Origin: Micromussa lordhowensis
Lineage: Eukaryota; Cnidaria; Anthozoa; Scleractinia; Lobophylliidae
Direction of reading: 5' to 3'
Assembly: GCA_964020085.1 (NCBI GenBank)
Contig: OZ026606.1
Location: 8,859,683-8,923,682, forward strand
Length of the DNA stretch: 64,000 nucleotides
The notes under the pieces were generated by a model, which did no database searches, was not told the origin of the DNA, and was given only the letters and a program-made list of their open reading frames with translations. Position numbers and translations under genes: made by a program. Below, one piece after another: positions 45,883-59,266 of this stretch (position 1 is its first letter; every line of letters starts with the position of its first letter).

Positions 45883-45976
45883 AGTAGTAGGAAACAGACA
45901 GTTCAACGCCAGGGCGTATGCGTAGGGGCGTAGGGGGCGTTGAGGGGCGTCCGTGACGCCATAATCCCCTAGGAAA

Positions 45977-46170
45977 TGACATCATTCCCCATTCCGGGAG
46001 ATGACATCATTGGAATGAAGCGGTGTTTGCGTAGGGGCGTAAGGGTGTTCATGACATCATTTTTTACCGTAATGTGACGTAATTCCCCTTTTCGGAAGAT
46101 GACATCACCGTGGGGAAAAGCTAAAAATAGATCAGATGACGCTGTAGGATAATTTTAGAGGATGACATCA
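45977..46170. promoter_or_regulatory. Cluster of TGACATCA motifs at the left tip
   Basis: Five copies of TGACATCA start at 45977, 46002, 46052, 46100 and 46163, and a TGACGTAA lies at 46075. Steps are 25, 50, 48 and 63 bases. The motif is one base from the CRE/ATF site TGACGTCA. The cluster is repeated in inverse order at the right end (about 58980-59175; one right-hand copy is mutated to TGACATCA with C for T next to it). Such iterated words near termini could be binding sites for a transposase, terminal protein or host bZIP factor; this is inference. Confidence 0.55.
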
Positions 46171-47559
46171 TGAAATGAAACCTCCTGCCTAATTCGGTCT
46201 ATTATTGAGATCAACAAGAAAAAAAAAATTTATTAGCAGGGTAATTTCATCTCTGAATAAAATTTACTTTATTTCTATTACTTTATTTTATGACCCGGGA
46301 AATATCAATTATGTATAGGCGACATGAAAATTACTTTTCCACGTTTGGACCGTCAATTTGTATTTTCATTTTGAATAGACGCTAAGCAGAAAAGAAATTT
46401 CCTTTGAACATGATTACTATAGGCTTTAGCGCCTTGGGCCAATGTCTGTATGGATCGCGGTTTCGTCTTATTTGCCTTAGTTATTATAAAAATCTACGAT
46501 TGCGAATAAACCGATTTCTATTTGGTCTGACAAAACAATTCCATTTGTTCAAACACATTAGAGTTTTCCATTGCCTCTATGTTATTGAAAAAATAATGTC
46601 CCTGGGGTCATTAACCGCCTAAAGTTATGCAAGTAGACAAGACCGAGAAAATGAACGAACAAAAATGTTTTCAAAGACGTTTACTGCAATCAATTAATTA
46701 ATCTTAAACTATTTACAACTCATAGAGCTCTAACAAGTCAAGTGATCATTTGGACGTCCTACTGTTAGTTCTTTCAATGCAGTTATGATCGAGTGCGCTG
46801 AACCATACTTTGTACTCAAGGCCTTTTCGATAATTCTGTGAAGTCATTAGTCATTAACTTCAATGAAACTTCGAGGTAGCATTGATAGTCTTGTATCCTA
46901 TATCCTATAGGCCCTAATCCCTCTTCTGAGTGTTCTCCGACTGTTTTTGGTCTATAACATGCCTTGATATAAATAGTCTAAGCTCTATTAAATATAATGC
47001 AAGTCAAAATCATAGAGATTCCTTTCATGACTTCACATCCCGATAGTTTTCATTCTGCTCATATCTAATTCCCTGAGGCGCGACGCGAGCTTTGTGTAAC
47101 TATCTAACACGTTTAGTCAATAGAACATCCAGCGCAATTGACTGAATGTAACTCGTGTTTTATTGGATACATCTCATTTTCTCCTGTCCGTTTATCTTTT
47201 CCATCATAGTCCTTGAGAGCTCGATAACATTGTTAGCTACGTTTTGCACCGGTATGCAGTTGTTGTTATAAACCATGTTTGTTACAAACCATGTTTTAGT
47301 GTTAACACTTGTTTGGTTTACTTGACGATACAATAATGCAAATGCTTTATTCGACTATAATTTATAATTATACCTTGAGAGGCTGCGCCGCTTTCCTATT
47401 TGTGACGTTTTCATGATATCTGTTACATTTTCAGTGACAGGCGGGAATGCTGAGGCATCGCACAAAATGCAGTTTGTGCAAAGTAATAACTTTTTTTTAA
47501 AATTAATTTTCTCAGTGAAAACTTTTGAAAAGAATACCATCCTTGCTAAATAAAACTGC

Positions 47560-55615: not shown

Positions 55616-55847
55616 CCAATACTCTTGATATTCAGGGATTGCGTGACGAACGTTACCTGCCGGTAAACGCGTTATAATTTTCTCTCGGTAATGTTTGCAA
55701 CAGAAGAGAACCAAAAATCCGTTATGCTGTATTAATAAACCCCTTATTATAGCACAAATTATTCGCTCGTTGGCACTCTATCGATAGGTATACCTAGTTT
55801 TATTTGTTGATGGTTTTGTTTATTTGTTGATGTTAGTGAATGCAAGA

Positions 55848-58800
55848 AGAGATTGGAAGCGGATTACTCCTGGAACCTACGTAATCACATGTAAAAGTAA
55901 TTAACGTTGATGTAAATAAAACAATGAAGACGAAAAAACAATGTCTGGATTGTTGTGTGTTCACAAGTCTCCGTCGAACGAAACAAAATTTGCACAAGTG
56001 TGAGGTTTATAATTCGGTTGTTCGGATAAAAATCACATATCCTCTTCACTTTGATTATCCTCCCCACCACCTTCGACATTTAGTGGCAATAGATGGAGCA
56101 TCACCGACGGTGGTCGCTGTCTTGATTTTCAACATCGAATGGTCAATCGAAATAAAATTACTGCTGTTGGTAGGATTACCAGACTTAAAATCAGAGGACA
56201 AACATGAATTTTGCCGTGGTAAGAAAAACCTTTTATTGAAAGCACACGCGTGCCTTTTTCTCACATTCCCTCACGCTATCGCCACGCGTGATTCTACGCG
56301 TGCTCTCAGAGAAAAACACAACAGTAAAAATGGCCCTTTTGGCCCCTTTGGCCCTATAAATTCCGCATTATAACCGGTTTTGTTCAATTAGGCTTAAACA
56401 TTTACACTATTAATGTGGTGAATAGAAAATGTAAACAATGCCCCATCCCAGGGTATGGGTCAAAATTTTAGTTCGTTTGGCAAACCATTTGGCACAATTG
56501 CAAGTACACGATTTATTTCTGAAAATGTACATTAGGTAAGAAACTTGAGATTTCCTTTACAGAGAAATTATTAACTTATTTAGTGATTTATCATTCGATT
56601 ATCATTCGATTTTTCGAAGACAGTTGCGTGATCTCAGTAATAAGATTGGCCTTGCTTTGCAGCCAGTTTTTGTAAGCAAGAAATTAGAACAAGACCTTAA
56701 GCCTAGAGAAGCCAAGCCGTCAGATTGTTAATCAGCGATGCGTTGTTTATCATTTTGTATGTGATCTGTGCGATGCAGATTATGTCGGCTATACGGCCCG
56801 ACACCTTTTTCAACGAGTCGCTGAACACAAAAATTCGGCAATTGGCAAGCATTTTCATGAAGCGCATGGTTTGAGGGATCGTTTGAACGAGAGTCATTTT
56901 AAGATTCTGAGAAAGTGTCAAGGTAAACTTGATTGTTTAGTGTTTGAAATGCTTTCTTTATATTAAGAAATTCAAACCTAATCTGAACGTGCAAACGGAC
57001 TCCATACGTCCTAAACTTTTTGTTTAACTTGTAAATTATTTTTCCTTATTGTTCTTTTTTAGTATTTATAGAACTTATTTTTATATTTTCTTGACTTGAT
57101 AATGACCTTATGTTAACGTTGAAACGTCGTCGATTTTAGCTTTCTATAGCTTTTTATCGTTTTTTAACTTTTTTAAATCTTACAATGTTATTAAGCAACG
57201 TTTTGTCGCAAGTTTTTATCGTCAAATGTTATTGTAAGTCACTTCTTCTACGGAGTTTTACAGAGATAAGGAAAAACTTTTATTGAAACCACGCGCACGC
57301 TTTCCTCTCACGATCTCCACGTGCGATTCCACGCGTGCTCTGAGAGAAAAACACAACGCTAAAATGTGGCGTTTTTGGCGTTTTTGGCGCTTTTCGCTTG
57401 ATGAATGTAGTTTTGCAAAGTTTTGTTCAGTTGTAATCCAACTTTCACAGAGATAACATGGTGCGGAGGAAATGTAAACATTGTCCGATGTCAGATTTTA
57501 GTTCGTTTAGCAAAACATTTGGCACAAGTACATGATTTATTTGAAACAGAACGAAAATATTGGCTGCAATTTGCCAAGTCTCATTAAGAGCAGTTTTATT
57601 TAGCAAGGATGGTATTCTTTTCAAAAGTTTTCACTGAGAAAATTAATTTTAAAAAAAAGTTATTACTTTGCACAAACTGCATTTTGTGCGATGCCTCAGC
57701 ATTCCCGCCTGTCACTGAAAATGTAACAGATATCATGAAAACGTCACAAATAGGAAAGCGGCGCAGCCTCTCAAGGTATAATTATAAATTATAGTCGAAT
57801 AAAGCATTTGCATTATTGTATCGTCAAGTAAACCAAACAAGTGTTAACACTAAAACATGGTTTGTAACAAACATGGTTTATAACAACAACTGCATACCGG
57901 TGCAAAACGTAGCTAACAATGTTATCGAGCTCTCAAGGACTATGATGGAAAAGATAAACGGACAGGAGAAAATGAGATGTATCCAATAAAACACGAGTTA
58001 CATTCAGTCAATTGCGCTGGATGTTCTATTGACTAAACGTGTTAGATAGTTACACAAAGCTCGCGTCGCGCCTCAGGGAATTAGATATGAGCAGAATGAA
58101 AACTATCGGGATGTGAAGTCATGAAAGGAATCTCTAAATTTTGACTTGCATTATATTTAATAGAGCTTAGACTATTTATATCAAGGCATGTTATAGACCA
58201 AAAACAGTCGGAGAACACTCAGAAGAGGGATTAGGGCCTATAGGATATAGGATACAAGACTATCAATGCTACCTCGAAGTTTCATTGAAGTTAATGACTA
58301 ATGACTTCACAGAATTATCGAAAAGGCCTTGAGTACAAAGTATGGTTCAGCGCACTCGATCATAACTGCATTGAAAGAACTAACAGTAGGACGTCCAAAT
58401 GATCACTTGACTTGTTAGAGCTCTATGAGTTGTAAATAGTTTAAGATTAATTAATTGATTGCAGTAAACGTCTTTGAAAACATTTTTGTTCGTTCATTTT
58501 CTCGGTCTTGTCTACTTGCATAACTTTAGGCGGTTAATGACCCCAGGGACATTATTTTTTCAATAACATAGAGGCAATGGAAAACTCTAATGTGTTTGAA
58601 CAAATGGAATTGTTTTGTCAGACCAAATAGAAATCGGTTTATTCGCAATCGTAGATTTTTATAATAACTAAGGCAAATAAGACGAAACCGCGATCCATAC
58701 AGACATTGGCCCAAGGCGCTAAAGCCTATAGTAATCATGTTCAAAGGAAATTTCTTTTCTGCTTAGCGTCTATTCAAAATGAAAATACAAATTGACGGTC

Positions 58801-59266
58801 CAAACGTGGAAAAGTAATTTTCATGTCGCCTATACATAATTGATATTTCCCGGGTCGGAAAATAAAGTAATAGAAATAAAGTAAATTTTATTCAGAGATG
58901 AAATTACCCTGCTAATAAATGTTTTTTTTTCTTATTGATCTCAATAATAGACCGAATTAGGCAGGAGGTTTCATTTCATGATGTCATCCTCTAAAATTAT
59001 CCTACAGCGTCATCTGATCTATTTTTAGCTTTTCCCCACGGTGATGTCATCTTCCGAAAAGGGGAATTACGTCACATTACGGTAAAAAAATGATGTCATG
59101 AACACCCTTACGCCCCACGCAAACACCGCTTCATTCCAATGATGTCATCTCCCGGAATGGGGAGTGATGTCATTTCCTAGGGGATTATGGCGTCACGGAC
59201 GCCCCTCAACGCCCCCTACGCCCCTACGCATACGCCCTGGCGTTGAACTGTCTGTTTCCTACTACT
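55848..59266. repeat. Right terminal inverted repeat, 3.42 kb
   Basis: Inverted copy of 45883-49309. Visible differences include a one-base change in the AGTGATGTCAT word (59163), a missing base in CGTGGGGCG and a 7-versus-6 base T/A run. Identity of roughly 98-99% is my estimate from the stretches compared. Confidence 0.85.
56218..57603 (+). mobile_element. Second Penelope-like fragment in the right arm
   Basis: Mirror copy of the fragment in the left arm, here on the plus strand. It shows the same GIY-YIG wording (about 56745-56925), the same one-base frame break at TCAGATTG (about 56721-56728), and the same flanking direct repeats. Confidence 0.65.

What the first reader, a model, noticed from the sequence alone, without database searches (positions are those of the whole stretch)
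45883..59266. Complete PolB-only Maverick-like transposon with giant 3.4-kb inverted repeats
Both ends, the 6-bp target duplication and the polymerase are all visible, so this is a defined insertion and not a fragment. It lacks integrase, capsid, ATPase and protease genes, and half its length is inverted repeat. This could be a streamlined derivative mobilised in trans, or an uncharacterised lineage of self-replicating elements that needs only PolB plus host or helper functions.
Basis: partly seen in the sequence, partly recalled or inferred. Interest (0 to 1): 0.9.

Follow-up and report, generated by a model that had tools for sequence, protein, structure and literature searches.

The report
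Maverick derivative keeping only its polymerase
This is a complete but stripped-down copy of a virus-like jumping gene (a Maverick) in what is probably a coral-like animal; it kept only its own DNA polymerase, grew giant mirror-image ends, and most likely moved with an integrase supplied by fuller relatives found in the same genome.

Summary
A 13,384-bp element (45883-59266) with ~3.43-kb inverted arms sits in the reverse-transcriptase ORF of a Penelope-like element; removing it plus one copy of the 6-bp duplication CAAGAT gives a continuous 509-aa ORF. Its only complete gene is a 1,384-aa protein-primed PolB with one predicted 98-bp intron. My searches found no integrase, capsid or ATPase remnant. 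The 580.8-Mb genome shows what it is. Its 22-bp terminus occurs 18 times (reversed control 0). Seven both-ended elements, 1.05-33 kb, each have a perfect but different 6-bp duplication. Of five other close PolB places, four were read and all four continue into Maverick genes; one (C9, 12.5 kb, 94% PolB, exon 2 intact) carries integrase and packaging ATPase. In C9, sequence duplicated in our arms is single-copy between PolB and ATPase. So this is a rearranged, non-autonomous Maverick: integrase in trans, replication probably by its own PolB. It is the only PolB-only copy seen, so a PolB-only lineage is not shown. Codon changes private to its PolB are mostly synonymous, unlike three decaying relatives, so the gene was constrained. 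New variant of a known kind.

The parts
45883..59266 (.). Whole element, 13,384 bp, non-autonomous Maverick/Polinton derivative
45877..45882 (.). Left target-site duplication CAAGAT
59267..59272 (.). Right target-site duplication CAAGAT
   Evidence: its removal with the element gives a continuous 509-aa ORF
45883..49317 (+). Left inverted arm, 3,435 bp
55840..59266 (-). Right inverted arm, 3,427 bp
45883..45904 (+). 22-bp terminus AGTAGTAGGAAACAGACAGTTC (opens with AGT repeats), shared exactly with the PolB- and ATPase-bearing element at C1:10392534-10425520
59245..59266 (-). Same 22-bp terminus, right end
45883..46665 (+). Outer 783 bp of the arm, shared wholly or in part with the elements at C3, C5, C944, C10 and C1:6.46M
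47570..49323 (+). Inner arm, element 1688-3441: sequence that in the C9 Maverick is single-copy between PolB and ATPase; here present in both arms, partly duplicated and interrupted
48200..48475 (-). GIY-YIG fragment in left arm, probably a nested retroelement piece
   Evidence: the identical right-arm copy gave PF01541 E 7e-4, under the cut-off, and 483 homologues
56688..56963 (+). GIY-YIG fragment in right arm
49323..49433 (-). Inverted, frameshifted copy of the PolB 3' region (54217-54325), contiguous with the left arm
   Evidence: 12 of 109 aligned positions differ
50446..51474 (+). PolB exon 1: C2H2 fingers and a region at the position of the terminal-protein domain of polinton PolB
   Evidence: domain assignment by position after PMC11071308 (passages)
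51475..51572 (+). 98-bp GT..AG intron, phase 0 (predicted)
51573..54698 (+). PolB exon 2 with stop: vOTU-like, zinc finger, HNH/endonuclease VII-like, exonuclease and polymerase regions
54792..55794 (.). About 1 kb (element 8910-9912) absent between PolB and the following sequence in the C9, C1, C797 and C5 relatives; origin unknown

Best explanation
A non-autonomous, rearranged Maverick/Polinton. Ancestrally it had PolB followed by an intergenic stretch, ATPase, capsid-type genes and integrase. The block from ATPase to the far end was lost, the intergenic stretch was joined to a ~1.7-kb terminal segment shared in its outer part with PolB-less derivatives, and the resulting right end was copied to the left, giving 3.4-kb arms. 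Shown: ends, duplication, gene content, relatives, the PolB fragment beside the left arm, near-identity of the arms. Inferred: (1) the PolB, which carries the regions that serve as terminal protein and protease in polinton PolBs, replicated the element from its AGT-repeat termini; (2) an integrase from fuller family members with the same kind of end inserted it and made the 6-bp duplication; (3) the arms were kept alike because protein-primed replication copies one end from the other.
For: Perfect insertion into a Penelope-like RT ORF. 22-bp terminus at 18 genome sites, 0 for the reversed control. 7 of 7 elements with both ends found have a perfect 6-bp duplication: C12 CAAGAT, C3 GAGATG and C5 CAAGCT, C9 CAAGGT, C8 TTCCGG, C11 AATCAG and C1 GCCATG. 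C1:10.39M has the same 22-bp ends, a 93% PolB (2 stops) and an ATPase ORF. C9 (12,483 bp, end repeats about 119 bp) has a 94% PolB with open exon 2, integrase with chromodomain and a Pox_A32/Adeno_IVa2-like ATPase. 4 of 4 other close PolB loci that were read continue into Maverick genes. Arm segment 1688-3441 maps between PolB and ATPase in C9. PolB fragment inverted beside the left arm. The two tips of each both-ended element are identical over 40 bp in 6 of 7 and differ at base 38 in C11, although tips differ between elements. PolB fold phi29-like.
Against: No second copy with the same interior was found, so movement in this form rests on one insertion; the element could have been remodelled after a smaller relative inserted here. 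Integrase was seen in one close relative only (C9), whose 22-bp tip differs from ours at 5 bases (13, 14, 16-18); the integrase region of the exact-terminus copy C1:10.39M was not read. The inverted PolB fragment is 11% from our PolB and about as far from C9 and C1, so it may come from another copy. Subterminal sequence of ours and of C1/C9 differs, so recognition by the same integrase is assumed. Pfam's DNA_pol_B_2 model did not report our PolB.
Confidence: 0.84

Rival explanations
1. In-situ remodelling: a short PolB-less family member inserted with CAAGAT, and PolB plus longer arms arrived later by recombination or gene conversion. The PolB-containing form never moved.
For: Outer 567-783 bp is shared with PolB-less elements; the interior was seen once; SNPs between arms cluster inwards (14 of 19 beyond arm position 2500).
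Against: Needs matching changes in both arms kilobases apart; arms are 98.6% identical over their whole length including the PolB-adjacent segment. Private PolB changes are 29 synonymous to 11 nonsynonymous codons, unlike a gene long stranded in place.
Confidence: 0.1
2. A lasting PolB-only lineage, replicating itself and borrowing integrase or using host functions.
For: PolB is open and its private codon changes look constrained (29 synonymous to 11, codon positions 10/5/27; a random change would be nonsynonymous in about 80%), while private changes of three relatives do not (C1 0:11, C797 0:7, C5 6:15). The inverted PolB fragment, which marks the derived structure, is 11% diverged (12 of 109).
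Against: One copy seen. The constrained branch also includes the stem of the other copies and ancestors with full gene sets; the fragment may come from another element.
Confidence: 0.15
3. Assembly artefact or chance inverted repeat.
For: Large palindromes can be misassembled (general knowledge).
Against: 19 SNPs and several indels between the arms, perfect duplication and continuous host-element ORF, six other both-ended family members.
Confidence: 0.01

Closest known systems
Maverick/Polinton transposons (polintons; animal adintoviruses)
   Same: Protein-primed PolB with endonuclease VII-like insert (reported for Sf Maverick POLB, PMC5803895, passages), AG-starting inverted ends, 6-bp duplication, family members with integrase and packaging ATPase
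   Different: No integrase, ATPase, protease or capsid found; 3.4-kb arms against about 119-bp ends in C9
Cytoplasmic linear plasmids (pGKL1 type)
   Same: Described as derived from (proto)polintons by loss of the morphogenetic module, with TP-vOTU-EXO-PALM polymerase (PMC11071308, a preprint, passages)
   Different: Ours is chromosomally integrated with a target duplication; no free form shown
PolB-less 1.05-6.3-kb elements in the same genome (C3, C5, C8, C11)
   Same: Same terminus type and 6-bp duplications
   Different: No PolB; C3 and C5 carry a ~206-aa ORF of unknown function instead
Bidnaviruses
   Same: A polinton PolB and terminal repeats kept apart from the rest of the polinton genome (PMC4061559, passages)
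   Different: Bidnaviruses have parvovirus-type capsid and helicase genes; none was found here

Membership tests
[quoted passage not shown]
   Pfam DNA_pol_B_2 was not reported for our protein
Maverick/Polinton | 6-bp target-site duplication | tested here: met
Maverick/Polinton | Inverted terminal repeats starting AG (AG rule recalled, not from a call) | tested here: met
Maverick/Polinton | RVE integrase | tested here: not met
   not found in the element by Pfam on 8 of its open frames and tblastn with L002 and C9 integrases; present in C9
Maverick/Polinton | Packaging ATPase, protease, capsid genes | tested here: not met
   ATPase ORF present in the C9, C1, C797 and C5 relatives
Non-autonomous Maverick derivative | Same cis ends as an integrase-bearing family in the same genome | tested here: inconclusive
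   22 of 22 bp identical with C1:10.39M (PolB and ATPase read, integrase region not read); C9, with integrase, differs at 5 of 22
Non-autonomous Maverick derivative | Moved in trans | not testable with these tools
   inferred from ends and duplication only
Cytoplasmic linear plasmid | Free linear DNA with protein-bound ends | not testable with these tools
   only a chromosomal copy is seen
PolB-only lineage | More than one copy with the same PolB-only content | tested here: not met
   one copy among the loci read; C1:40.15M and the 38 places at 44-68% identity were not read, and one search scored 44 of 1,481 candidates

The most novel reading that the evidence does not exclude
A plasmid-like animal element: a one-gene, self-replicating PolB replicon with giant inverted arms, descended from a capsid-encoding Maverick, whose polymerase stayed under selection for replicating its own DNA long after the virion and integrase genes were lost, using relatives' integrase only to re-enter chromosomes. 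It would be a chromosomal counterpart of the step from polinton to cytoplasmic linear plasmid.
Probability: 0.17. Interest if true: 0.78.

Novelty: new variant of a known kind. Interest (0 to 1): 0.5.

Why it matters
Polintons are thought to have given rise to linear plasmids and several virus groups by losing or swapping modules (PMC11071308, passages). Here one genome holds an integrase- and ATPase-bearing Maverick, a polymerase-only form and 1-6-kb forms with the same kind of ends, so which parts are needed in cis for replication and integration can be asked by comparison. The copied arm with a PolB piece beside it also shows how giant terminal repeats can arise in protein-primed elements.

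Tried and rejected
Remnants of lost genes: tblastn of 23 open frames of at least 110 aa from two IMG/VR relatives against the window (counted) and of 11 C9 ORF pieces plus ORF206 against the element. In the element only PolB gave a strong match; one search added pieces of the LRR-like ORF that lies next to PolB in C9. Other one search hits (E 0.01-10) were judged chance; the best (E 0.011) is the GIY-YIG region of the flanking Penelope-like element. A Pfam scan of whole frames with stops was not accepted, so Pfam covered 8 open frames of the element only. GIY-YIG as the element's own nuclease: considered because L002 also carries a GIY-YIG ORF; rejected as main reading because the fragment is 92 aa, belongs to a widespread family, and a 6-bp duplication of integrase type is already explained. 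Terminus (26 bp) in viral contigs: none. PolB in viral contigs by the protein alone: none. PolB in genome contigs: 6 stretches, none confirmed. Single-sequence structure: useless, pLDDT 28. Rfam: no match in the element at E<=1. Diverged 68-80% ends: beside 8 of the 12, 15 stretches (L018-L032) gave no match to PolB or to the viral proteins, but L026 is wholly masked and L022, L027, L032 partly (3,934, 1,727 and 5,000 N), so this is weak. Asked but did not complete: genome searches with the C9 integrase and with interior pieces of the element.
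Full report
Observation. The element is real and complete. Inverted arms 45883-49317 and 55840-59266 were found by two methods and differ by 19 SNPs in 3,417 aligned columns plus 28 gap columns. CAAGAT lies on both sides. The surroundings are a (-) strand Penelope-like element: RT ORF 59266-60324 (RVT_1) and, beyond the insertion, an ORF at 45005-45637 that matches the GIY-YIG ORF of L002 weakly (E 0.011); the name Penelope-like is recalled from the look of these proteins. With the element and one CAAGAT removed, the two halves read as one 509-aa ORF; with both CAAGAT copies left it is 383 aa. 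This fixes both ends.

Gene content. The only complete gene is PolB: exon 1 50446-51474 with C2H2 fingers, a predicted 98-bp intron, exon 2 51573-54698. The spliced protein aligns without gap across the junction to ten homologues. For exon 2, 5,675 of 7,989 scored proteins match at E<=0.001 and the best 120 were listed; among them are proteins of Oculina (70% over 87%), Dendronephthya, Actinostola and Mytilus and the PolB of a named adintovirus, 53%. In a 65-sequence alignment D215 and E217 (in YADFE), D602 (in YLDANNLYG) and D864/D866 (in DTD) are invariant; C42 and H135 are nearly invariant. Reading these as exonuclease, polymerase A and C, and vOTU residues is recalled and by analogy with PMC11071308. 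The model (pLDDT 90.3) matches phi29 DNA polymerase best (TM by target 0.63-0.71 in the top nine rows). Pfam reported Endonuclease_7 just under its cut-off and not DNA_pol_B_2. In polinton PolBs a terminal-protein domain and a vOTU-like protease precede the polymerase (PMC11071308, abstract and passages), so a one-gene element could in principle carry its whole priming machinery. That is inference for this protein.

Two IMG/VR contigs encode PolBs 42% and 39% identical. L002 also has an rve integrase, a Pox_A32 ATPase and a capsid match under the cut-off (E 0.028); L003 has a PLA2-like ORF. In our element their proteins find only PolB strongly.

The genome. The window is C12:8859683-8923682 of a 580.8-Mb assembly; the host is probably an anthozoan (inferred from the named homologues). 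The first 300 bp of the arm has 23 matches: 11 at 96% or more, from our two ends and five other places, and 12 at 68-80%. The five places (C3, C5, C1:6.46M, C10, C944) share up to the outer 783 bp with us and carry all or part of a ~206-aa ORF without Pfam match, and no PolB match; parts of these stretches are masked (200 N in L012, 977 in L013, 858 in L015). The 22-bp tip occurs 18 times, the reversed control 0 times. Seven elements have both ends and all seven have a perfect 6-bp duplication: C12 13,384 bp, C3 4,836, C5 3,515, C8 1,053, C11 6,292, C1 32,987, C9 12,483. C5 and C9 have variant tips, 3 and 5 differences in 22, and are not among the 18. Of the 18 exact sites, 10 pair up into five elements and 8 are unpaired: C10 and C944 were read as stretches, C4 and two on C14 only near the tip (L046-L048), and C1:12.92M, C3:35.52M and C650 not at all. 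At C1:6.46M both ends, and at C10 and C944 one end, are incomplete, so no duplication could be tested there.

Close PolB relatives. One search scored 44 of 1,481 first-look candidates and listed 50 matches. Six places encode this PolB at 90-100% in their main match: ours, C9 (94%, exon 2 open), C1:10.39M (93%, 2 stops), C1:40.15M and C797 (92%, same match statistics), C5:12.81M (90%, 1 stop). I read the surroundings of C9, C1:10.39M, C797 and C5:12.81M, not C1:40.15M: in 4 of 4 an ATPase ORF follows PolB, and in C9, C797 and C5 further Maverick ORFs. C9 has rve plus chromodomain and an ATPase matching Pox_A32 and Adeno_IVa2. Of its other ORFs, three that I take for capsid or protease genes were scanned and had no relevant Pfam match. 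The other 38 places, at 44-68%, were not read.

How it was built. In C9 the order is integrase, other genes, ATPase, a 1.35-kb stretch, PolB, end. In ours that stretch is found in both arms (element 1688-3441 and its inverse), partly duplicated, with a GIY-YIG fragment in the middle, and it joins a 1.69-kb terminal segment where C9 has ATPase to integrase. Just inside the left arm lies an inverted piece of the PolB 3' end. The simplest account is loss of the gene block plus copying of the right end to the left. Upstream of about element 4990 the PolB region falls from 84% to 59% DNA identity with C9, so the 5' part may come from another subfamily.

Selection. Against C9 the PolB has dN 0.030, dS 0.166 (NG86; YN00 0.035 and 0.107). 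Codon changes private to ours are 12 synonymous to 5 nonsynonymous in 424 codons (four relatives), 29:11 in 582 (three) and 44:25 in 870 (two); relatives over the 424 codons: C9 2:2, C1 0:11, C797 0:7, C5 6:15. A random change would be nonsynonymous in about 80% of cases. So our PolB branch was constrained. The branch is unrooted and includes the stem of the others, so this does not date the PolB-only state.

Mechanism. Integration in trans is supported by ends and duplications; replication by its own PolB is plausible but not shown. The two tips of each both-ended element are identical over 40 bp in 6 of 7 and differ at one base (38) in C11, while tips differ between elements, as expected if each end is copied from the other during replication.

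Novelty. Non-autonomous forms of other DNA transposons are commonplace (general knowledge). For Mavericks, a search for six phrases such as 'non-autonomous Polinton' in the held open-access library gave 0 papers. Eight wider searches were seen as listings only, most cut to 10-20 rows; no listed title or abstract start was about this. Passages were read in five papers and none described it there. The 2006 Polinton paper and a 2015 polinton review are not held, so a description elsewhere cannot be excluded.

Changes after checking. The region absent from relatives now ends at 55794; tip differences, unpaired sites, masked stretches, scored candidates and paper searches are given exactly.

Noticed in passing
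L012:4326-4943(-); also in L013, L015/L016, L017 and part of L014: A ~206-aa ORF in elements with our terminus, in both arms of C3 and C5, 61-100% identical between stretches, no Pfam match.
   Followed up: partly
L043 (C8:3585668-3586720): A 1,053-bp MITE-like element with the Maverick 22-bp ends, 138-bp inverted repeats and duplication TTCCGG.
   Followed up: partly
G000: 38 further PolB places at 44-68% identity, many in open frames of ~1,270-1,340 aa, several with near-identical scores, suggesting recently active Mavericks.
   Followed up: no
window 45005-61619 (-): Penelope-like element interrupted by the insertion; its GIY-YIG-like region is in another open frame from the RT.
   Followed up: partly
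window 12952-13625: 298-bp tandem repeat, 2.2 copies, two of them with a tRNA-Arg(TCT) gene.
   Followed up: no
window 10206-11510 (-): RT ORF that looks like a DIRS-type retroelement (by eye, no search).
   Followed up: no
G000 ends: Tips agree within an element though they differ between elements, and C8 and C11 combine the 22-bp tip of ours with subterminal sequence like that of C1/C9.
   Followed up: partly
window 54792-55794: About 1 kb between PolB and the right arm, absent from four relatives, origin unknown.
   Followed up: no
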